From the NCBI RefSeq assembly GCF_964033635.1, contig NZ_OZ035533.1:5022001-5086000 (forward strand): 64,000 bases of DNA, written 5' to 3'. Below, one piece after another: positions 4,621 to 58,564 of this stretch; position 1 is the first letter of the stretch; the number at the start of each line of letters is the position of its first letter. A model generated the notes under the pieces. The model did no database searches and was not told the origin of the DNA. It worked only from the letters and a program-made list of their open reading frames with translations. This DNA comes from Chitinophaga sp. MM2321. Its GTDB lineage: Bacteria; Bacteroidota; Bacteroidia; Chitinophagales; Chitinophagaceae. Both the position numbers and the translations under genes were made by a program.

Positions 4621-4651
4621 TTTGGATTTCCAACGCATTGTGTTACCTTTG
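4621..4651 (+). promoter_or_regulatory. SRP RNA promoter (TTTG-N19-TACCTTTG)
   Basis: -33 box TTTG at 4621-4624 and an exact -7 box TACCTTTG at 4644-4651, 19 bases apart. This is the consensus spacing of the Bacteroidota primary sigma factor. The RNA 5' stem begins at 4656, which calibrates +1 at about 5 bases after the box. Confidence 0.9.
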
Positions 4652-4655
4652 CCCC

Positions 4656-4750
4656 GGCAAGTCTTATACGACCAGCTCCTACTGAACTCCCCCAGGACAG
4701 GAATGTAGCAAGGGTAGGTGGTTGAAGCGGTGCGATATAAGTAACTTGCC
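4656..4750 (+). ncRNA. ffs: Small bacterial signal recognition particle RNA (4.5S-like)
   Basis: The RNA scaffold of the signal recognition particle binds Ffh and guides membrane-protein ribosomes to FtsY. The conserved helix 8 region is plain at about 4690-4715: CCCAGGACAGGAATGTAGCA, with the GGAA-type loop and the asymmetric AGCA side that Ffh binds. The ends pair (GGCAAGT at 4656 with ACTTGCC ending at 4750), giving a rod of about 95 nucleotides. It is followed by an eight-T run and preceded by a consensus promoter. Both the length and the motif match the small SRP RNA class. Confidence 0.92.
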
Positions 4751-4760
4751 TTTTTTTTCT
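4751..4760 (+). terminator. T-tract ending the SRP RNA
   Basis: The closing stem of the SRP RNA is followed at once by a run of eight T's, so the RNA's own terminal helix can serve as an intrinsic terminator. Confidence 0.6.
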
Positions 4761-8110: not shown

Positions 8111-9424
8111 ATGATTCAGCCTAACATTCCGGCAACAACTCAACCGCGTGTAGTAATTGTAGGAGGCGGATTCGGTGGCATCAACCTGGCCAAACACCTC
8201 AAAAATGCACCCGTACAGGTAGTATTATTGGATAGAAATAATTATCACCTCTTTCAACCGCTGCTCTACCAGGTATCCACTGCCGGGCTGGAACCGGATA
8301 GTATCGCTTTTCCGCTGCGTGGCATTTTCAGGAAACAAAAAAATATCGTATTCCGCATGGCGGAAGTAACCGGCATCCGGACTACAGAAAACATCCTGGA
8401 AACCGGTATCGGCGAAATACCCTACGATTATCTCATATTTGCTACCGGTAGTAATACCAACTTCTTTGGCAACAAAAACATTGAGGAACACGCCATCGGC
8501 ATGAAATCACTCATTGAAGCTGTGCAAATAAGAAACTACGTCATAAAACAATTTGAAGAAAGCCTGTTGCTCCGTGATCCGGAAGAAATAAAACCCAAAC
8601 TTAATTTTGTAATGGTGGGCGGTGGTCCCACTGGTGTAGAACTGGCGGGCGCCTTTGCGGAATTACGCAAATATATCATGCCTAAAGACTACCCCGCCCT
8701 GCCACAATCACTGATGAATGTTTACCTGATTGAAGCAGGTCCCAGGTTACTCGCTTCCTTCAGTGAAAAAACATCACAGAAAACACAGGCATCCCTGCAG
8801 GAACTCGGCGTGCACGTAATGTGCAACACCGGCGTAAAAGAATACGACGGTCATACCGTCACCCTCAGCACCGGTGAAGTAATCCATAGCCAATCACTCT
8901 TGTGGTCTGCCGGCGTGAAAGGCGTGCCTGTAAACGGATTGCCACCCGACATCCTCTTACCAAACGGCCGCATTCTTGTCAATGACTTTAACCTGGTACA
9001 AGGTTACTCCAATGTATACGCCATCGGTGATATTGCACAAATGACGAATGACCAGCGTTTTCCAAAAGGATACCCGATGGTGGCGCAGGTAGCCATACAA
9101 CAGGGTAAAAACCTGGCCCAGAACATCCGTCTTTTACTGGAAAATAAACCCCTGAGAGGATTTGTCTACAAGGATCTCGGCAGCATGGCCACCATAGGAC
9201 GGAACAGGGCCGTAGCCGAATTCGCCAACATACACCTGAGCGGCTATTTCGCCTGGATCGTGTGGATGGTTGTACACCTTATGAGCCTACTCGGATTCAG
9301 AAATAAACTGGTGGTTTTCATCAACTGGTTCTACCGCTACTTTACATACGAAAGAGGTACACGTATCATCATCAAACGCGGCGCCGCCAATATTGTGAAA
9401 CTGCGGCAATCAGTAGGAGTATGA
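8111..9424 (+). CDS. ndh: Type II NADH:quinone oxidoreductase (NDH-2)
   Basis: 437 residues. The FAD-binding Rossmann motif GGGFGGINLAKHL is at the N-terminus, a second nucleotide fold VMVGGGPTGVELAGAFAEL (NADH) is near residue 170, and YAIGDIA is the late FAD contact. The C-terminal 80 residues (YFAWIVWMVVHLMSLLGF, then an aromatic-basic tail) form the membrane anchor. The enzyme passes electrons from NADH to the quinone pool without pumping protons. It is monocistronic, with its own promoter and a terminator-bearing repeat after it. Confidence 0.9.
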   Translation: MIQPNIPATTQPRVVIVGGGFGGINLAKHLKNAPVQVVLLDRNNYHLFQPLLYQVSTAGLEPDSIAFPLRGIFRKQKNIVFRMAEVTGIRTTENILETGIGEIPYDYLIFATGSNTNFFGNKNIEEHAIGMKSLIEAVQIRNYVIKQFEESLLLRDPEEIKPKLNFVMVGGGPTGVELAGAFAELRKYIMPKDYPALPQSLMNVYLIEAGPRLLASFSEKTSQKTQASLQELGVHVMCNTGVKEYDGHTVTLSTGEVIHSQSLLWSAGVKGVPVNGLPPDILLPNGRILVNDFNLVQGYSNVYAIGDIAQMTNDQRFPKGYPMVAQVAIQQGKNLAQNIRLLLENKPLRGFVYKDLGSMATIGRNRAVAEFANIHLSGYFAWIVWMVVHLMSLLGFRNKLVVFINWFYRYFTYERGTRIIIKRGAANIVKLRQSVGV

Positions 9425-9616
9425 CCAGGATTAAAGGATTTCCAGGATTTTCCCTGATGGGTGTTTTGTTGATAGATATTTGTTGTTTTTAATTTTTCAA
9501 TAGAGAAGCCCTGGTTATGACTACCAGGGCTTTTATTTTATTTTATTTTAATAATAAATGTCTATCAACAAAACACCCATCAGGGAAAATCCTGGAAATC
9601 CTTTAATCCTGGTCAT
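9421..9616. repeat. Palindromic element A: perfect 54-bp arms round a terminator
   Basis: Left arm 9421-9474 and right arm 9563-9616 are exact inverse complements over 54 bases and continue for six more with one mismatch. The outer ends carry the TGA stops of the convergent genes on each side. The ends read ACCAGGATTAAAGGATT and the inner part GATGGGTGTTTTGTT; both words recur in element B at 17.2 kb. A shorter hairpin sits in the middle. Confidence 0.9.
9506..9536. terminator. Bidirectional terminator inside element A
   Basis: AAGCCCTGG (9506-9514) pairs with CCAGGGCTT (9524-9532), followed by TTTTATTTTA. It serves the convergent ndh and DUF5103 genes. Confidence 0.8.
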
Positions 9617-10905
9617 TTGCGGTTTAATATAGAGTTCAACGTTATACTGGATACCAGCTCATCAGACCTTCCTCCCAGCGGGCGGAAATACAATAGAATG
9701 GTATAATTATTTTCTGTTTCCCAGTAATCGCCTTCTGTCAGGTCTGTATTAAATTTTGGATGCGGTAATGTTTTATCTACCAGTCCGTAGATATAATTGT
9801 AGTACCCCTGTTTCAGAAAAAGCGTGCCTTCATAAGCCCGGCTGGCGCCATTATAGGTAAGTTTGTTCGTACTGTTACATTCGTAGCTGGTCATCTCTCC
9901 AAAGATGTACATATCATAACCGGCATAAGGTTCAGGCGCTACAAAAGAAAAATGTACTGATGCATAATCGCCTTCAAAATTAGGGTTATAATCATCCAGT
10001 GTGGCGAGATAAAATTTACCATTTACATCTTTGATAAACTGGTATACTTTATCTGCCCGCTCATGATCAGGAACGGCATATACATCCGTACTGCTGCTGT
10101 GATATTCTGATCGTTGTACCCTTTCTGTCTGCAAACGAAAACTCCGCAAATCAATCCAGCGGTATTCCTTTCCTCCGGGTATCACACAATCAATTTCTGT
10201 ATTATACTTGATCACATTGCCATTAATAAACTGTGGTTTCAGATTGGTGATGGCATTGTCCCAGCGGTAGTTCTGAAGGATCACCACCTTCACCTGGTCA
10301 AAAGGGTTCTGAATGTTCAGGGCTCCCATATTAACTTCAAAATTCACTTTCTGATGTGTGCGGAATAACTTAGGGCTTACCGGCTGCTGGATATAACCAG
10401 ACAATCCTGCTTTATTCTCTACTACAAACATTCTCCGGGTAAAGGCCAGTTGCGTGGTGTCACTGTCCAGGTACACTTTCAGCAGGTAGTTACCGGATTT
10501 TACCGGATAGCTGTTAGTGCCGGGCAGCTGTACGCTATAGTGGGTATACCTTTGCAGGGCAACACTCGACAACCGGTAATCAAGGATCCTTGTTTCGGAA
10601 AACCCGCGCATATAATCAAACGGATTCACCTGCGCCTGCGTCCAGTCGGCATTACAGAGAACAAAAGAATAATAGTAGTTCTTTACATCATTATCCATGT
10701 CATCAAAAGACAACTCCAGCTTCTCACCACCACCTATCGTATACATAGGCATACTCAGCGGATCTCCCTGCTGGTTGAATTTTACTGACTTAATATTGTT
10801 GTAATAAACGTGGTCCGGAGTGATGACGTTTACCTGCGCAGCCGCACTGCCGGTAAACAGGAATGGTATCAAAACCATTATAAGAATAAATGCTGCTGTA
10901 CGCAT
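9613..10905 (-). CDS. DUF5103 domain secreted protein
   Basis: 430 residues. A signal peptide (MRTAAFILIMVLIPFLFTG, cut near AAA-QVN) precedes a beta-rich protein with many Y and F residues. It is consistent with a DUF5103 family protein, common in Bacteroidota and often annotated as type IX secretion-linked or outer-membrane associated. The role is not known. No cell-surface anchoring signal is obvious at its C-terminus. Its last codon lies against the end of palindromic element A. Confidence 0.75.
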   Translation of the reverse strand: MRTAAFILIMVLIPFLFTGSAAAQVNVITPDHVYYNNIKSVKFNQQGDPLSMPMYTIGGGEKLELSFDDMDNDVKNYYYSFVLCNADWTQAQVNPFDYMRGFSETRILDYRLSSVALQRYTHYSVQLPGTNSYPVKSGNYLLKVYLDSDTTQLAFTRRMFVVENKAGLSGYIQQPVSPKLFRTHQKVNFEVNMGALNIQNPFDQVKVVILQNYRWDNAITNLKPQFINGNVIKYNTEIDCVIPGGKEYRWIDLRSFRLQTERVQRSEYHSSSTDVYAVPDHERADKVYQFIKDVNGKFYLATLDDYNPNFEGDYASVHFSFVAPEPYAGYDMYIFGEMTSYECNSTNKLTYNGASRAYEGTLFLKQGYYNYIYGLVDKTLPHPKFNTDLTEGDYWETENNYTILLYFRPLGGRSDELVSSITLNSILNRK

Positions 10906-16436: not shown

Positions 16437-17240
16437 ATGTCGCTAGAACATCATAAAGACGCAACGCTACGTTACCAACAGCAGGTAGACAATTCACGCA
16501 ACTACGTACTGCCTTTTATACAGCTGGAGTTTCCTTCCCTGGCAGGACTTCGGGTAATGGAGGTAGGCTGCGGAGAAGGTGGTGTGCTTGCACCGCTGCT
16601 GGAAATGGGCTGCAATTGCGTAGGTGTAGACCTTGCACCAGCCCGTATTGAGCTCGCAAAAAGTTTCCTGGAAAAATATACCGCGGCCGGCCAGTTAAAA
16701 CTGATCGCCCAAAACATCTATGACGTTGATTTCCTGGGAGAGTTCCGCAACTCTTTTGATGTAATCATTCTCAAAGATGCTATTGAACATATTCCTGATC
16801 AGGAAAAAATTATTGGTCACCTGAAACAGTTACTCAGTCCACGCGGACAGGTATACTTCGGTTTTCCGCCCTGGTACATGCCTCATGGCGGCCACCAGCA
16901 GATTTGTGAAAATAAGTTCCTGAGTATGGTGCCCTATGTTCACCTGCTACCCAAACCTTTATACAATGGGGTGTTGCGCCTCTTCGGAGAACAACAGGAT
17001 ACTATCCAGGACCTGATGGAGGTAAAGTCTACCGGCATCTCTATCGAACGCTTCGAAAGAATTGTAAAACGCCAGCACTATAAGATCACACAACGCCGGT
17101 TTTATCTGATCAATCCTATCTACAAATACAAGTTCGGTGTAAATGCCCGCGAACAATGGAAACCCATTGCGGCCATCCCTTTTGTACGGAACTTTGTAAC
17201 CACCTGCATGTATTACATGATCAAACCGGACCAGGATTAA
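16437..17240 (+). CDS. Class I SAM-dependent methyltransferase
   Basis: 267 residues. Motif I VMEVGCGEGGVLAPLLEMG, the acidic VGVDLAP of motif II and DVIILKDAIEHIPDQ of motif IV make a Methyltransf_11/23-type fold. The C-terminal half (YFGFPPWYMPHGGHQQ and a basic end) is unlike the ubiquinone or small-molecule classes I know, so the substrate is not assigned. The last codons (GAC CAG GAT TAA) lie in palindromic element B, so the repeat supplies the C-terminus QD and the stop. Confidence 0.75.
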   Translation: MSLEHHKDATLRYQQQVDNSRNYVLPFIQLEFPSLAGLRVMEVGCGEGGVLAPLLEMGCNCVGVDLAPARIELAKSFLEKYTAAGQLKLIAQNIYDVDFLGEFRNSFDVIILKDAIEHIPDQEKIIGHLKQLLSPRGQVYFGFPPWYMPHGGHQQICENKFLSMVPYVHLLPKPLYNGVLRLFGEQQDTIQDLMEVKSTGISIERFERIVKRQHYKITQRRFYLINPIYKYKFGVNAREQWKPIAAIPFVRNFVTTCMYYMIKPDQD

Positions 17241-17377
17241 AAGATTATAAGATTAAACAGGATGGGTGTTTTGTTATTTGAAAATTAAAAACAATAAAAT
17301 ACTTATCCTATTAATAAAAATTAATAAAAACAACAAAACACCCATCCTGTTTAATCTTATAATCCTTTAATCCTGGT
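17230..17377. repeat. Palindromic element B: 46-bp arms, one mismatch
   Basis: Left arm 17230-17275 and right arm 17332-17377 are inverse complements over 46 bases with one mismatch; the inner 56 bases are very AT-rich. It shares ACCAGGATTAAAGGATT and GATGGGTGTTTTGTT with element A. Both convergent genes (methyltransferase and aroE) end inside its arms with CAG GAT TAA. Confidence 0.9.
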
Positions 17378-18101: not shown

Positions 18102-18124
18102 GAAGCCATGATTTAATTTGGATA

Positions 18125-18209
18125 TTTTTTTATTTTTTTATTTAGTTATTTGAAATGCAGCGAAGATGACCGGCCGCAATTCAAATAATTAAATAAAAAA
18201 ATAAAAAAA
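18125..18209. repeat. Palindromic element G
   Basis: Arms 18125-18154 and 18180-18209 match over 30 bases with one mismatch. The inner segment AAATGCAGCGAAGAT (18153-18167) and the preceding TTTAGTTATTT are shared with element F at 30.6 kb. Confidence 0.85.
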
Positions 18210-18222
18210 TTCCTACCTAGAA

Positions 18223-18987
18223 TTATTCTTTGTCCAGAAACAAATGAAAGGAGTCTCCTCTCAAGCCGACACGCATGGCTTCGAGGGAAATAACTTCATT
18301 TGGTGCGAGGTTGCCGAGGTTGGCGTTACAACCAACCAGCTCCAGGAAGTAGAGTTGTTGTGCTTTCTGTGGAGCTTCCCAGATGATTTTTTCAGCGGGG
18401 ATCTGTGTCAGGATTTCCTGAACCAGTCCTTCGCGTACTTCACCACTACCGCGATAGATTCCTACGTTACCGCTTTCACGGGCTTCCGCAATGACATAGG
18501 TAGCGCCGGCAGATAGTTCTGTACTCATTAATTCGATCCATTTATAGGGAGGAATAATGTGCTCAGCATCTTTGGAACCTACTTCACTGAGTACCAGTCC
18601 TATTTTTGCCAGCTTCTCAATATAGCCGCATTTTTCCGCATGGGGGATGATGATAGAACCATCAGAAACCTCCATGTATGTGATCCCGTAATCCTGTACG
18701 AGCTTTACATATTCATCGAACTGATTGCGGATGAGGAATGCTTCAAATAAGGTACCACCAAAATAAACAGGGATGTTGGCTGATTGGTAGAGTTCTATCT
18801 TTTCACGCAGGTTGGGCGTGACAAAGGCAGTACCAAAGCCCAGTTTCAGGATGTCTACGTGCGGGCCCGACGCTGATAAAAAATTTCTTGCTTCTTCCAA
18901 ACTAAGCCCCTTATCCATTACCATGGTTAGCCCATGATTGCGGGGTTTCTTTGTCCTTTCCGGGATCTGTGTCAGATTAAAATTCAT
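18223..18987 (-). CDS. Phosphosulfolactate synthase homologue (ComA family)
   Basis: 254 residues from MNFNLTQIPERT; 14 extra codons upstream read poorly. Family features: TMVMDKGLSLEE, DILKLGFGTA, YFGGTLFEAF, YMEVSDGSI, ARESGNVGIY and GLRGDSFHLF in TIM-barrel order. ComA adds sulfite to phosphoenolpyruvate, the first step of coenzyme M synthesis in archaea. Bacteroidota do not make coenzyme M, so sulfolactate could instead lead to cysteate and sulfonolipids (inference). Some bacterial homologues have other roles. A -7 box lies at 19121-19128, giving a leader of about 130 bases. Confidence 0.85.
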   Translation of the reverse strand: MNFNLTQIPERTKKPRNHGLTMVMDKGLSLEEARNFLSASGPHVDILKLGFGTAFVTPNLREKIELYQSANIPVYFGGTLFEAFLIRNQFDEYVKLVQDYGITYMEVSDGSIIIPHAEKCGYIEKLAKIGLVLSEVGSKDAEHIIPPYKWIELMSTELSAGATYVIAEARESGNVGIYRGSGEVREGLVQEILTQIPAEKIIWEAPQKAQQLYFLELVGCNANLGNLAPNEVISLEAMRVGLRGDSFHLFLDKE

Positions 18988-28418: not shown

Positions 28419-30569
28419 ATGAAGAAGTTTTTAGTTTTTGGCTTTGTGGCAATGATAACTACCTTACAGGTAGCTGCACAAAAAACAACTGGAATACCCC
28501 CGGATACCACGCCCGTAGCGGTTCCGCCGTCTTCGCAGGTAGGTTTGGGTGAGGTGGTGGTAACCGCCAGCCGGAATAAAGAAACAGTGGGTACCGTACC
28601 GTCCTCCATCACGATCATCACCGGTAAACAACTACGCGAACAAAGCGCCATCACCACCGATATCAATCAGCTCCTGAGCATGAATGTACCGGGGCTTACA
28701 CTAGGCACCAATACTTCCACCAACAAAGGACAAACCCTACGTGGCCGCGGTATGCTCATCATGATAGATGGTATTCCGCAATCTACCCCCCTGCGTAACG
28801 GCGACAAAGACATTCGTAGTATAGACGTTTCCGTTATAGAAAGAGTGGAAGTGATTAAAGGCGCTACGGCTATCTACGGCAATGGTGCCGATGGTGGCAT
28901 TGTGAATTTCATCACCCGGAAAGCCAATACAGACAAGCATTTCAGTGGCACCACTGATGTAAGCACCGCCGGATCTCTCAGCAGTCTTAAAAACAGTATG
29001 GGTGGCCGCATCTCCCAGACTTTCAGTGGTAAAATCAACAGGTTTGATTACGTGGTAAGCGGTATGTATGAGCAAACAGGGGTAAACAAAGATGCCAAAG
29101 GTGAGGTGATAGGCCCTTTTCAATCGCTCAGCGAAAATGAAAATGTCAATGCCTTTGCCAAACTGGGCTACGATATCAACAGTAATAACCGCGTGGAACT
29201 GATGTACAACTACTACCGTTCCATGCAAAACAGCAGCTACGTAGACTCCGGCGGTAAATTCGGCTATAGCCCGATTGTAGGGATTCTTGGTACCAGTGCC
29301 GGCGACAAACAGGGTACTCCCTATAACCACAACGCCAACCTGAACTATACCAGTAAAAACATCTTCAAAAATACATCGCTGAGTGTAAACCTTTATTACC
29401 AGGACTTCTACACCGTTTTTGAATATTCCGACTTCTATTCGCCTCCCGGTAATTCCGCTATTGTTTCAAAGAAAATGGGCGCCAGGGTGAATTTTAATAC
29501 CGGGTTCAATTTCAGCCCCAATGTAAATGGCGACGTAACCTGGGGTGTGGACATCCTGAACGACAAAACTTCCCAGCCACTTACTGATGGCAGAGGCTTT
29601 GTACCGGAGATGAACATGAAAAACCTGGCTCCTTATGCCCAGCTGAAAACGTACCTGTTCCGCGACTTCCTCGTAAAGGCCGGTGTGCGCTACGAAAATA
29701 TCAACCTGGACATTCCTGACTTTACTACGATCCGCTACGGCAATACGCCCCAGGCTTATCCCGGTGGTGTGTTTGTAAAAGGAGGACGCCTCCCTTATGA
29801 AGCACTGGTATTTAATGCCGGTTTGCGGTATACAAAATATGCTGCATTCAATCCGTTTGTAAGCTATTCACAAAGCTTCTCCCTGTATGATCTGGGCCGC
29901 ACGCTGCGCCTGGCAAAGGATAATGGCGGCGGCGCCACTGTAAATACGATAGAAACAAAACCGATCATTACCAATAATTATGAAGCCGGCTTTAACAGTA
30001 ATATAGGGCACTTCAATGCTTCCGGGTCCTACTTTGTGAGTACTTCCAAACTGGGTACCAGCCTGGTAGATGTAGGCGGCGTAGCGGTGCCGGAAAGAGC
30101 ACCCGAACGTGTACAGGGCTTTGAAATAGTGGCCGGTTACCAGTTTCTGCCTAACCTGTCTGCCAATACTTCCTGGTCGCATGTAGAAGGTCAAAAGGAT
30201 GTAAACGGGGTGCATACCTATCTGCCTACTACCCGCATCTCGCCTGATAAAGTAACCGTAAATGTAAACTACTCCCCTCTCAAACAATGGGACCTGGGCG
30301 TGTATTACATCTATTCCGGTATCCGCCAGCGTTTTGATGCAGATGCAAAAGGAAATTTCGCCCTGGGACAGGGACCTGTGGGAGATTTCTTCCTGGTTAA
30401 TCTCTATACTTCGTATCGTTTCAATAAGTCTACCAGCCTGCGCCTCGGTGTGGATAACCTGCTGAATGCAGATTACTATCCGGTCATGTCCCAGGCTAAA
30501 GTGCGTAACGATTCCTACTACAAAGGCAGCGGAGCTAGGTTCAATCTGGGCCTGACTACTAATTTTTAG
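28419..30569 (+). CDS. TonB-dependent siderophore-type receptor
   Basis: 716 residues. Signal peptide to about residue 20, TonB-box-like region, plug domain from VVVTASRNKETVGTVPSSI (about residue 47) with TLRGRGMLIMIDGIP and the box VIERVEVIKGATAIYGNGADGGIVNF, then a beta barrel ending LGLTTNF with a terminal phenylalanine. There is no carboxypeptidase-like N-domain, so it is not a SusC protein. It imports a ferric siderophore or similar iron complex; the ligand is not known. It overlaps in operon with the PepSY membrane protein, which may reduce the imported iron. Confidence 0.9.
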   Translation: MKKFLVFGFVAMITTLQVAAQKTTGIPPDTTPVAVPPSSQVGLGEVVVTASRNKETVGTVPSSITIITGKQLREQSAITTDINQLLSMNVPGLTLGTNTSTNKGQTLRGRGMLIMIDGIPQSTPLRNGDKDIRSIDVSVIERVEVIKGATAIYGNGADGGIVNFITRKANTDKHFSGTTDVSTAGSLSSLKNSMGGRISQTFSGKINRFDYVVSGMYEQTGVNKDAKGEVIGPFQSLSENENVNAFAKLGYDINSNNRVELMYNYYRSMQNSSYVDSGGKFGYSPIVGILGTSAGDKQGTPYNHNANLNYTSKNIFKNTSLSVNLYYQDFYTVFEYSDFYSPPGNSAIVSKKMGARVNFNTGFNFSPNVNGDVTWGVDILNDKTSQPLTDGRGFVPEMNMKNLAPYAQLKTYLFRDFLVKAGVRYENINLDIPDFTTIRYGNTPQAYPGGVFVKGGRLPYEALVFNAGLRYTKYAAFNPFVSYSQSFSLYDLGRTLRLAKDNGGGATVNTIETKPIITNNYEAGFNSNIGHFNASGSYFVSTSKLGTSLVDVGGVAVPERAPERVQGFEIVAGYQFLPNLSANTSWSHVEGQKDVNGVHTYLPTTRISPDKVTVNVNYSPLKQWDLGVYYIYSGIRQRFDADAKGNFALGQGPVGDFFLVNLYTSYRFNKSTSLRLGVDNLLNADYYPVMSQAKVRNDSYYKGSGARFNLGLTTNF

Positions 30570-30602
30570 ATTTACGAATTTTTTGATTTAGTTATTTAGG
30601 TA

Positions 30603-30658
30603 TTTAAAAAAAATGCAGCGAAGATTACCATATGGCGATCTTCGCTGCATTTTTTAAA
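30603..30658. repeat. Palindromic element F with terminator-like core
   Basis: Arms 30603-30625 and 30638-30658: TTTAAAAAAAATGCAGCGAA... pairs with TTCGCTGCATTTTTTAAA. Outer words ATTTACGAATTTTTTGATTTAG and CTAAATTCGTAAAT extend the palindrome. AAATGCAGCGAAGAT (30611-30625) is shared with element G. It separates convergent TonB receptor and purL and can end both. Confidence 0.85.
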
Positions 30659-30689
30659 TAACTAAATTCGTAAATAACTAAATCGTAAA

Positions 30690-37889: not shown

Positions 37890-37933
37890 TGTTTTCCTTA
37901 TAAGTTAATAATAGCCAATTAGCTGTTAGCAGT

Positions 37934-38001
37934 TAACTTTTAGCAGTTAGCCTTTAACCCGACAATCCTGTCAGAGGCTAAAGGCTAACTGCTAAAAGTT
38001 A
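37934..38001. repeat. Palindromic element H between accB and accC
   Basis: Perfect 23-bp arms: 37934-37956 (TAACTTTTAGCAGTTAGCC...) and 37979-38001. A small inner stem GACA/TGTC lies between them. Being inside an operon, it will fold in the mRNA. Confidence 0.85.
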
Positions 38002-38011
38002 CATGCTATTA

Positions 38012-38482
38012 TTACGGTTCAACTAAAAACAAAGGTTGATCATATTCTACCGGAGATGCATCATCTACAAGTACTTTAACGATTTTGCCACTCACTTCGC
38101 TTTCTATTTCGTTGAACAGCTTCATCGCTTCAATGATACATACAACTTTACCTGAAGTTACTTCATCACCTACATTGACAAAGGCGGCTTTGTCCGGACC
38201 GGCACTACGGTAAAATGTACCGATCATCGGAGATTTAATCGTAATCAGGTTGTCGGCTTTTGGAGCAGGTGCTGCGGCGGCGGCCGCGGCTACAGGTGCT
38301 GCAACAGGCGCTGCCGCTACCGCTTGTACCGGTGCAACGGCCGCTGGGAGGGTGATTACCTGTTGTACTTCGTTATCTTTCTGCTTTATTGTAATCTTAA
38401 ACTTGTCCTGTTCAATGCTCAGTTCACTGATATTTGACTTGTTGATCATTTTTACCAGTTCCTGAATCTGTTTAAAGTCCAT
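38012..38482 (-). CDS. accB: Biotin carboxyl carrier protein of acetyl-CoA carboxylase
   Basis: 156 residues from [13 protein letters not shown], the usual start; the longer frame upstream runs into element I. A short N-terminal helix region, an Ala/Pro-rich linker (residues 47-75) and the biotinyl domain with EAMKLFNE follow, biotin going on Lys121. It carries carboxybiotin between AccC and the carboxyltransferase. The efp, accB and accC genes lie on the same strand, each separated by palindromic repeats. Confidence 0.94.
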
Positions 38483-38523: not shown

Positions 38524-38602
38524 GATTTACGATTTTGTGATTTTGGAATTTTGAGGCTTGCATTTCAAGTCTCAAAATTCCAAAATCACAAAATCGTAAA
38601 TC
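38524..38602. repeat. Palindromic element I between efp and accB
   Basis: Arms 38524-38555 and 38571-38602 are exact inverse complements over 32 bases; the loop itself begins CTTG and ends CAAG. Words GATTTACGATTTTG and GGAATTTTGAG relate it to the ATTTACGGATTTTGAG family. Confidence 0.9.
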
Positions 38603-38611
38603 TTTATATGG

Positions 38612-39178
38612 TTATGCTTTTACTCTCTCAATATATTCTCCGTTCTTGGTATTTACCCTGATCAGTTCTCCTTCGTCTACAAACAGCGGCACCATAACAG
38701 TAGCGCCGGTTTCAACGGTAGCGGGTTTCAGGGTACGGGTAGCCGTATCACCTTTTACGCCTGGTTCGGAGTAAGTAACCAGCATTACAATTTTATCGGG
38801 CAGTTCAACCGCCATGTACTGATCAGTTTCCGTATTAATCTGCACACTCACTTCCTGGCCTTCTTTCAGGAATTGTGGCGCGTCAATGGTATTTTCGGGC
38901 ATCGCTATCTGCTCGAAAGTTTCATTGTCCATGAAGTTATAGCCGGTATCATCCTTGTACAGATACTGAAAAGGTTTCTTCTCAATACGAACAGGGTAGA
39001 TAGTGTCACCTGAGTTCCAGGTGTGTTCTATGGAACGGCTATTGTCAACGCCTTTCAATTTAGCCCAAACTTTTGCTGCGGCCCGGGCGGTTTTGTTCTG
39101 ACCAAACTCTACAACAGAATACAAGCTGTTTTCCAGCTTGATAATTAATCCTGTTCTTATATCTGCGGTGGTAGCCAT
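38612..39178 (-). CDS. efp: Elongation factor P
   Basis: 188 residues in three beta domains ending GEYIERVKA, with TEPGVKGDTATRTLKPAT, the domain III signature. It frees ribosomes stalled on polyproline. The usual tip of the first domain (PGKG with a modified lysine) is here replaced by NKTARAAAK, placing Arg32 at the tip by my alignment. It is upstream of accB-accC on the same strand. A -7 box for it lies at 39220-39227. Confidence 0.92.
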   Translation of the reverse strand: MATTADIRTGLIIKLENSLYSVVEFGQNKTARAAAKVWAKLKGVDNSRSIEHTWNSGDTIYPVRIEKKPFQYLYKDDTGYNFMDNETFEQIAMPENTIDAPQFLKEGQEVSVQINTETDQYMAVELPDKIVMLVTYSEPGVKGDTATRTLKPATVETGATVMVPLFVDEGELIRVNTKNGEYIERVKA

Positions 39179-57371: not shown

Positions 57372-57459
57372 GACATTTTTTGTTTTACCCCTTACACCGT
57401 GTCAGGAATTGTAAGGTACATTGTTAAAGTGGGTGACTATACGGTCATTTTGGGATTTC

Positions 57460-57551
57460 CGAATTTTTTGATTTTTTGATTTCGGGGTTTTGTTTCAAAA
57501 GAAAATCTCTTACTAAAACAAAATCTCAAAATTCCAAAATCAAAAAATTCG
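57460..57551. repeat. Palindromic element J between rplQ and rpoA
   Basis: CGAATTTTTTGATTTT (57460-57475) pairs exactly with AAAATCAAAAAATTCG (57536-57551), with a further partial match GTTTTGTTT/AAACAAAAT inside. Same word type as elements E and I. It lies within the operon mRNA. Confidence 0.75.
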
Positions 57552-57568
57552 AAAATTCGAAAATGATT

Positions 57569-58564
57569 TTATTCTTCTTCGAGTTTCAGTTTAGACAGAT
57601 CCATACCGAAGTGCAGACCTCTTTCGCCTAATACCTGTTCAATTTCGCTCAGGGATTTCTGTCCGAAGTTTCTGAACTTCATCAGTTCTTCCTGTTCGTA
57701 TTGTACCAGTTCGCTCAGTGAATTGATCTTAGCTGCTTTCAGACAGTTGAAAGCACGTACGCTCAGATCGAGATCTTCGAGTGGTGTTTTCAGGATCTTA
57801 CGCAGTTGCAGTGTTTGTTCATCTACCACGTCTTCTTTTTCCGTGTCCTTGGTATCAAAGCTGATGTTTTCATCAGTAATGATCATCAGGTGCTGGATCA
57901 GGATGCGGGAAGCTTGTTTTACTGCTTCTTCCGGGTGGATAGTACCGTCTGTGATCAACTCCATAATGAGTTTCTCATAATCCGTTTTTTGTTCCACACG
58001 GGTATTTTCTATGCTGTACTTTACGTTCTTGATAGGTGTAAAGATAGAGTCGATAGCGATGTAGCCGAATACTGCATCCTTGGGTTTGTTTTCCTCAGCT
58101 GGAACATAACCGCGGCCTTTGCCGATGGTCAGTTCGATATCCAGCTTGGCAGAAGGATCCAGGGTACAGATTAACAGCTCAGGATTCATAATCTGGAAAG
58201 CACTGGTGGCTTTTTCGATCATGTCAGCGCGAAATTCTGTTTTGCCCTTAATCGACAGCGTGATCTTTTCGTTCGTTACATCACTCTCAGAGATTTTTTT
58301 GAAACGAACCTGTTTCAGGCTCAGAATAATCTCTGTAACGTCTTCAGTAACACCTTTCAGTGTAGCGAACTCGTGATCTGCTCCTTCAATCTTAATACCC
58401 ACAATGGCATAGCCCTCCAAAGAAGACAACAGTACGCGACGTAACGCATTACCGATAGTCACAGCATAACCTGGTTCTAATGGACGGAATTCGAATTGAG
58501 CTTCAAAGTCGGTAGACTTCTGCAATACGATCTTATCAGGTTTCTGGAAATTTAAAATTGCCAT
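57569..58564 (-). CDS. rpoA: DNA-directed RNA polymerase alpha subunit
   Basis: 331 residues: N-terminal dimer domain (PLEPGYAVTIGNALRRVLLSSLEGYAIVGIKIEG) and C-terminal domain (PLEDLDLSVRAFNCLKAAKINSLSELVQY) with the helix-hairpin-helix that binds UP elements and activators. It assembles RNA polymerase. It follows rpsD in the usual alpha operon order. Confidence 0.97.
   Translation of the reverse strand: MAILNFQKPDKIVLQKSTDFEAQFEFRPLEPGYAVTIGNALRRVLLSSLEGYAIVGIKIEGADHEFATLKGVTEDVTEIILSLKQVRFKKISESDVTNEKITLSIKGKTEFRADMIEKATSAFQIMNPELLICTLDPSAKLDIELTIGKGRGYVPAEENKPKDAVFGYIAIDSIFTPIKNVKYSIENTRVEQKTDYEKLIMELITDGTIHPEEAVKQASRILIQHLMIITDENISFDTKDTEKEDVVDEQTLQLRKILKTPLEDLDLSVRAFNCLKAAKINSLSELVQYEQEELMKFRNFGQKSLSEIEQVLGERGLHFGMDLSKLKLEEE

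What the first reader, a model, noticed from the sequence alone, without database searches (positions are those of the whole stretch)
9421..9616. Perfect 54-bp inverted repeat touching the stop codons of both convergent genes
Arms 9421-9474 and 9563-9616 are exact inverse complements over 54 bases with a terminator hairpin nested between them. This is far more than a terminator needs. Perfection over 54 bases suggests recent origin, copying by gene conversion, or selection. The two stop codons (TGA at 9422-9424; TCA at 9613-9615 read in reverse) lie within the arms. Its words recur at 17.2 kb. It could be a mobile palindromic element that inserts at gene ends.
Basis: partly seen in the sequence, partly recalled or inferred. 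Interest (0 to 1): 0.7.

Follow-up and report, generated by a model that had tools for sequence, protein, structure and literature searches.

The report
Mobile hairpins inserted at gene ends
The perfect inverted repeat is one copy of a family of mobile DNA hairpins that sit directly after the stop codons of bacterial genes, and some relatives of these hairpins carry a gene for a poorly understood nuclease-like protein that is probably their helper.

Summary
In detail: the 54-bp arms are exact and hold both stops. It is not unique. The genome (a Chitinophaga) has 165 arms of this family in 71 pairs, plus a second hairpin family. Arms begin at stop codons: 115 of 163 arms lie by a same-strand gene end, 53 of them with the stop ending from 1 nt inside the arm to 2 nt before it. 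Loci differ in sequence, yet the two arms of a locus agree: 30 of 71 pairs are perfect over 36 nt, at most 4 under random pairing. Orthologous convergent gaps in other Chitinophaga are empty, hold a plain terminator, or hold a different hairpin. The genome's only GxxExxY gene (PF13366, PD-(D/E)XK superfamily) lies between two such arms. Two arm-word patterns match 845 times in 19 genomes with that gene, 40 times in 41 without (shared ancestry uncorrected). The second family resembles the flanks of 23S-intervening-sequence-protein genes (PF05635). Best reading: gene-less copies of a hairpin element whose coding copies carry GxxExxY. Mobility is shown by comparison only; helper role and mechanism are inferred.

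The parts
9421..9487 (+). left arm of the hairpin (family A); 9421-9474 exact; outer end (A)TGACCAGGATTAA carries the stop codon of the left gene
9550..9616 (-). right arm, inverse complement of the left arm; 9563-9616 exact; carries the stop codon of the right gene
9499..9539 (.). terminator-like stem nested in the loop
8111..9424 (+). left convergent gene, NDH-2-like oxidoreductase (PF07992, PF22366)
9613..10905 (-). right convergent gene, type 9 secretion plug protein (PF17116)
17230..17377 (.). second family-A hairpin, between convergent genes; both stop codons (TAA of CCAGGATTAA) inside the arms
18124..18210 (.). family-B (period-8 ATTT word) hairpin, 12 nt from the 3' end of the - strand gene called at 18223-18987
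38524..38602 (.). family-B-like hairpin, 9 nt from the 3' end of the - strand gene at 38612-39178
57445..57566 (.). family-B-like inverted repeat (51-nt arms, 82%), 2 nt from the 3' end of the - strand gene at 57569-58564
30562..30689 (.). family-B-like words with a weak inverted repeat (arms 30580-30606 / 30663-30689, 85%) between convergent genes

Best explanation
The repeat is a gene-less copy of a selfish hairpin element. Anatomy: two arms of about 50 bp (67 here) made of 7-9 bp words (CCAGGATT, nnnGGATT, nnGGATTT, then GGATGGGTGTTTTGTTG) around a short or terminator-bearing loop. Coding copies carry a GxxExxY gene (predicted PD-(D/E)XK nuclease) between the same kind of arms. Step 1 (shown by comparison): the element spreads to many gene 3' ends, and its outer end lands at or directly behind a stop codon. 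Its outer words hold stops in three frames (about 1, 11 and 20 nt inside). At the window locus both proteins end at the same residue as in sister species (read by eye). Step 2 (inferred): GxxExxY recognises the arms as a hairpin in single-stranded DNA, cuts, and places the hairpin into DNA exposed just behind translated sequence or at an existing hairpin; no target duplication is made. Step 3 (result shown, cause inferred): the arms of many loci stay or become identical to each other while drifting away from other loci, most simply by template switching or repair inside the hairpin. Step 4 (inferred): at gene ends, above all convergent ones, the insertion is nearly neutral and survives.
For: Family: 165 arms and 71 pairs in this genome. 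Survey of 1.66 Mb (65 stretches chosen around family-A hits, 15 others, and the window): 113 inverted repeats, 0 inside genes, 63 convergent / 45 codirectional / 5 divergent against gap base rates 210 / 903 / 194. Family A to 3'-facing gene ends: median -1 nt (78 of 80 within 25 nt), against 65.5 nt to 5'-facing ends (n = 26); 27 of 29 convergent ones within 25 nt of both stops. Arms: 115 of 163 lie by a same-strand gene end; 53 of those at -1..+2, with TGA, TAG and TAA; 21 more use the TAA at -11. Concerted arms: 30 of 71 perfect over 36 nt; random pairing mean 0.43, max 4; 71 distinct left arms; own partner strictly best in 43 of 71. Empty and differently filled orthologous gaps. A 98%-identical copy 45 kb away in C. 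vietnamensis. GxxExxY between A arms in this genome and between arms of related words in C. vietnamensis and C. niastensis. Hairpins at two orthologous sites match the helper flanks of their own genome: sum 247 against permuted mean 117, max 188, 0 of 5000; 7 of 11 rank first of 30. Two word patterns against GxxExxY presence in 60 genomes: 845 matches in 19 with it, 40 in 41 without.
Against: No transposition has been watched, and no strain pair with and without one insertion was available; the nearest relatives are about 80% identical in DNA here. Four of 11 site hairpins did not match their own genome's helper best (ranks 4, 5, 6 and 21 of 30). Helper-bearing genomes are partly one clade, so the word association is not phylogenetically independent; these words also go with PF05635 presence (692 against 193). 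Only 11 of 19 Chitinophaga and 7 of 30 wider Bacteroidota GxxExxY loci have a spanning inverted match scoring above 20; this genome's own locus scores 20.0 and its two arms are imperfect. 24 of 71 pairs have arms with more than 5 equal or better rivals elsewhere. In three related species' orthologous hairpin I count 2 changes matched in both arms but 3 on one side only. No structure of GxxExxY was obtained. Convergent insertions flush with both stops are hard to get by one insertion into a 50-100 bp gap that already held a terminator.
Confidence: 0.66

Rival explanations
1. The hairpins are host-made double terminators or 3' end guards, selected because a long stem directly behind the stop stops transcription from both sides or shields the mRNA from exonucleases; they are not mobile.
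For: Position directly behind stops and preference for convergent pairs; arms kept complementary in many loci; some loops hold a terminator-like stem (10 of 45 larger loops).
Against: One sequence family in 71 pairs here, but more than one match of the exact array pattern in only 3 of 79 congeners; orthologous gaps exist with a plain terminator or only 2 bp; a 98%-identical copy 45 kb away on the same contig, and 89% copies on another contig, in C. vietnamensis; coding copies with GxxExxY.
Confidence: 0.15
2. Mobile hairpins, but moved by another enzyme (for example a REP-associated tyrosine transposase or a reverse transcriptase); GxxExxY and the four-helix-bundle gene are passengers caught in loops.
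For: Two unrelated proteins occupy the same place; family-B words go with GxxExxY (226 against 4) as well as with PF05635 (218 against 12), so helper assignment is not clean; G036 has 22 CGCAAAG word matches and no GxxExxY.
Against: Word type follows the helper flanks of the same genome, and word numbers follow helper presence. Presence of a tyrosine transposase was not tested.
Confidence: 0.17
3. Arms look perfect only because every insertion is young; no arm-to-arm correction or selection is needed.
For: Copies in C. vietnamensis are similar outside the variable word positions (read by eye); in the one orthologous hairpin compared, 3 of 5 changes are on one side only.
Against: All 71 left arms differ, with median between-locus identity 0.76 among the 30 perfect pairs, so many separate young sources would be needed; 2 of 5 changes in the orthologous hairpin are matched.
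Confidence: 0.12

Closest known systems
23S rRNA intervening sequences (IVS) with the S23 / PF05635 open reading frame
   Same: Hairpin with long complementary ends, optional small ORF inside, tandem heptameric repeats upstream of the ORF, scattered distribution, called selfish; an IVS replaced the small loop of a 23S helix (PMC4990558: abstract and passages seen, Discussion read). Many PF05635 genes in Chitinophaga lie between inverted word arms.
   Different: Sits at mRNA gene ends, not in 23S rRNA; family A is tied to GxxExxY, not S23; dozens of gene-less copies per genome; excision by RNase III not tested.
REP / REPIN elements with RAYT transposases
   Same: Palindromic, mostly downstream of genes and between convergent or codirectional ORFs, with a helper gene flanked by the repeats (PMC3733652, abstract read).
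   Different: Arms of about 50 bp against 20-40 bp units; no GTAG/CGTC tag at the arm ends; helper candidate is a predicted PD-(D/E)XK protein; locus-specific arms; outer end at the stop codon.
Bacterial MITEs, e.g. BrickBuilt of Porphyromonas gingivalis
   Same: Intergenic, non-coding, tandem short units with inverted ends in a Bacteroidota genome (PMC4596501, abstract read).
   Different: BrickBuilt has 23-nt units and lies 49-591 nt from genes; here the arms touch the stop codon, and no target duplication was found (0 of 7).
Template-switch repair of hairpin stems
   Same: Known way to create and keep perfect stems (PMC8794818, abstract read).
   Different: A mutational process, not an element; proposed here only for upkeep of the arms.

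Membership tests
MITE | terminal inverted repeats shared with a coding element in the genome | tested here: met
   family-A arms (imperfect) flank the only GxxExxY gene
MITE | autonomous partner encodes a transposase | tested here: inconclusive
   partner is GxxExxY / PDDEXK_3; no transposase function is known to me
MITE | target-site duplication | tested here: not met
   0 of 7 C. vietnamensis copies with both ends recognised
REP/REPIN | 20-40 bp palindrome with GTAG or CGTC tag | tested here: not met
   arm model 50 positions, outer end ACCAGG; definition from PMC3733652 abstract
REP/REPIN | RAYT gene in the genome flanked by the repeats | not tested
   no search for a tyrosine transposase was made
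23S rRNA IVS | located in 23S rRNA helix 9, 25 or 45 | tested here: not met
   the surveyed family-A and -B copies lie beside protein genes; 23S genes were not scanned
23S rRNA IVS | S23 (PF05635) ORF between complementary arms | tested here: inconclusive
   13 of 28 PF05635 loci in Chitinophaga score > 20 for a spanning inverted match, control genes 1 of 251 (2 of 30 loci dropped as too short); own genome has only a broken remnant, below the Pfam cut-off, between family-B words
23S rRNA IVS | excision by RNase III | not testable with these tools
   -
intrinsic terminator | short G+C-rich stem followed by a T run | tested here: not met
   the arms are long and A+T-rich; a separate terminator-like stem lies in the loop

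The most novel reading that the evidence does not exclude
GxxExxY proteins and the S23 four-helix-bundle proteins are two interchangeable helpers of one class of mobile hairpins that target translation stop codons in mRNA genes and helix loops in 23S rRNA. The 23S intervening sequences are then the rRNA-lodged minority of that class. Transposition would pass through a folded single strand that is copied or repaired back to perfection, so each insertion is born with identical arms.
Probability: 0.35. Interest if true: 0.9.

Novelty: new variant of a known kind. Interest (0 to 1): 0.74.

Why it matters
GxxExxY is a large protein family (8000 relatives scored in one capped search), with a match in 101 of 198 sampled genomes of this phylum. 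It is named only by a motif; two papers in the held library contain the name, and the one I opened mentions it in passing. A link to a mobile hairpin gives it a testable role. The same link offers a route to the origin of 23S rRNA intervening sequences, which PMC4990558 calls unclear after more than 25 years. The hairpins also offer many natural replicates for studying how inverted repeats keep their arms identical, and they supply stop codons and 3' UTRs to many genes.

Tried and rejected
Chance or artefact: rejected (shuffles; 70 further pairs). Ordinary terminator: only the loop stem fits. Rfam: at gathering threshold the only hit in the window is the small SRP RNA. A wrapped ancestral terminator (arms added around an old terminator): fits the window copy, but only 10 of 45 larger loops hold a stem and 26 of 71 loops are under 40 nt, so not general. 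The mismatched-flank control was uninformative because words and orthologous flanks are shared between loci; control genes of this genome were used instead, also for other genera, whose base composition differs. PDB sequence search with GxxExxY gave nothing significant (best E 0.92). Comparing hairpin presence at the two orthologous sites between helper-free and helper-bearing genomes was considered, but too few helper-free genomes were among the fetched loci.

Rows dropped or set by hand: one search printed 12 of its 59 loci in the wrong orientation, and these were not read there. In one search, 5 of 30 loci lacked one flank. In one search the hairpin threshold kept 12 hairpins from 52 listed loci (imperfect ones seen were missed), and one (G019, no helper) was dropped. 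In one search three weak partial PF13366 loci and two short PF05635 loci were left out. In one search one pair (4706916) was re-paired by hand with the arm at 4707022. In one search, 2 of 165 arms were dropped (match began past model position 3). In one search the weak PF13366 match in G055 was not counted as helper-bearing and the broken PF05635 remnant of G000 was; its binomial line on convergent enrichment used 111 instead of 113 and is not relied on.

Full report
WHAT IS THERE. The window belongs to a single-contig genome of 6.78 Mb (window at 5,022,001-5,086,000) whose named relatives are Chitinophaga. Between an NDH-2-like gene and a type 9 secretion plug gene lies an inverted repeat with exact 54-nt arms that continues to 67 nt at 96%. 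Both TGA stops are inside the arms, and a terminator-like stem lies in the loop. As RNA it folds at -134 kcal/mol against a shuffle mean of -41.

IT IS A FAMILY. The element's DNA finds many more copies in the genome, and two word patterns give 113 and 89 matches against 1 and 0 for the reversed patterns. I fetched 65 stretches of 20 kb around such hits and 15 others. A profile of the arm finds 165 arms, of which 71 pairs lie head to head within 450 nt. A scan for any inverted repeat in the same 1.66 Mb finds 113, none inside genes and none in shuffled sequence. Sorted by words, 53 are family A (this finding), 48 are family B (period-8 words GATTTnnn, often ending in AATGCAGCGGAGAT) and 12 are others. 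In the 15 other stretches and the window, 4 of 31 convergent, 3 of 209 codirectional and 0 of 32 divergent gaps hold one. Genes were called with my own hexamer caller.

WHERE IT SITS. 63 of the 113 lie between convergent genes, 45 between codirectional and 5 between divergent ones, while all gaps split 210 / 903 / 194. The outer end of family A is at the stop codon: median distance -1 nt to 3'-facing gene ends (78 of 80 within 25 nt), but 65.5 nt to 5'-facing ends; 27 of 29 convergent copies lie within 25 nt of both stops. Of 163 arms, 115 lie by a same-strand gene end. 53 of these have the stop ending from 1 nt inside the arm to 2 nt before it (27 at -1, 26 at 0 to +2), 21 stop at the TAA 11 nt inside, and 11 at 19-21 nt inside. 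No target duplication was found in 7 copies with both ends.

ARMS EVOLVE TOGETHER. The 71 pairs were formed by position, not by similarity (one hand correction). 30 are perfect over the first 36 nt, against a mean of 0.43 and a maximum of 4 under random pairing. All 71 left arms differ, and perfect-pair loci are only 0.76 identical to each other (median). 24 pairs have more than five better or equal rivals elsewhere, so the rule is not universal. In three related species an orthologous hairpin shows 2 changes matched in both arms, 3 changes on one side only, and in one species loss of the inner part of both arms. This small comparison does not decide between correction and drift. Template switching is a published way to keep stems perfect (PMC8794818, abstract).

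OTHER SPECIES, SAME SITES (read by eye). At the NDH-2/plug gap, sister species show a plain terminator (for example C. polysaccharea, C. arvensicola, C. dinghuensis), a lone arm (C. hostae), or hairpins of unrelated words (C. niastensis, C. solisilvae, C. vietnamensis, C. terrae, C. oryziterrae). At a second convergent site (orthologues of L266; 25 of 30 loci with both flanks) gaps are 2 bp in four genomes, short and sometimes terminator-like, or hairpins of at least four word types. The exact family-A array pattern has more than one match in 3 of 79 genomes: G000 (53), G038 (62) and G027 = C. niastensis (8); 12 others have one each.

THE CODING RELATIVES. This genome has one GxxExxY gene (TIGR04256, PF13366), and it lies between two family-A arms at 6,298,899 and 6,299,517; these two arms are imperfect copies of each other (score 20.0 against a shuffle maximum of 16). 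Its alignment keeps G29, E32, Y35, D71, E81 and K83 invariant in 47 sequences, as expected of the named superfamily. Spanning inverted matches above a score of 20 are found at 11 of 19 Chitinophaga GxxExxY loci, 13 of 28 PF05635 loci, 7 of 30 GxxExxY loci across the phylum, and 1 of 251 control genes; 23 of the 30 exceed the controls' 95% point of 12.5 (the last number counted from its list). A PF05635 remnant with a stop, below the family cut-off, lies between family-B words in this genome. Hairpins at the two orthologous sites resemble the helper flanks of their own genome more than chance: 11 hairpins, sum 247, permuted mean 117, maximum 188, 0 of 5000; four of the 11 do not rank first. Over 60 genomes, CGCAAAG and CAGGATT word arrays number 845 in the 19 with GxxExxY and 40 in the 41 without; with PF05635 the split is 692 to 193 (counts). 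Family-B words go with PF05635 (218 against 12) but also with GxxExxY (226 against 4, counts), so that assignment is weaker. Shared ancestry of the helper-bearing species is not corrected for.

NESTING. In C. vietnamensis, family-B words lie inside family-A arms, symmetrically on both sides (L265, L268). In C. niastensis, several modules are strung one after another in an arm (L275) (read by eye). New hairpins thus seem able to enter the tip of older ones. PMC4990558 says of 23S intervening sequences that they replaced small loops of helices.

HOW IT MOST LIKELY WORKS. Shown: a family of hairpins at stop codons, abundant in a few species, with coding relatives and, in many loci, matching arms. 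Inferred: GxxExxY is the mobility nuclease acting on the folded arm; insertion goes into DNA exposed behind translated sequence or at a hairpin; survival is highest between convergent genes. Survival alone explains the closeness to the stop codon poorly: uniform insertion into gaps would put 11% of 3' distances at 0-2 nt with a median of 33, while 26 of 115 arms (23%) lie there and 27 more have the stop ending 1 nt inside.

COMPARISON. It works like REP/RAYT pairs and like 23S intervening sequences, but fails their defining features that I could test (tag and unit size; place in 23S rRNA). MITE is the loosest fit: shared inverted ends are met, target duplication is not, and a transposase is not evident. 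I found no account of GxxExxY as a mobile-hairpin gene: the library search for the name gave two papers, of which I opened one and saw a single passing mention, and seven topical searches showed none in their listings, which for searches were the top part of longer lists.

Noticed in passing
window 37927-38008: A hairpin of TAGCAGTTAACTTTTAGCAGTTAGCC words, 3 nt from the 3' end of the - strand gene at 38012; these words resemble the arms around a PF05635 gene in G036 (L191), so a third family may be present.
   Followed up: partly
window 4648-4755: Small SRP RNA (Rfam RF04183, 99 bits).
   Followed up: no
G000:C1 2,654,072-3,694,513: No paired family-A copy was listed in about 1 Mb of the chromosome, only weak single matches at 3,018,411, 3,382,760 and 3,470,964 (lists are capped); possibly a replication-related gap.
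   Followed up: no
L302, L300, L303 (second orthologous site): In G074 the orthologous hairpin has lost the inner part of both arms and now looks like a small terminator; such hairpins may decay into, or give rise to, ordinary terminators.
   Followed up: partly
L275 4287-4606 (C. niastensis): Strings of hairpin modules of two word types (GTCTGAAC-CAGGATT.. and GTCTGAAC-TGTGATT..) joined by linkers like GCGGAGATCTTAGCGG.
   Followed up: partly
L150 (C. qingshengii): The NDH-2/plug gap holds extra sequence, apparently an open frame, instead of a hairpin (about 630 bp between the two matches in G011).
   Followed up: no
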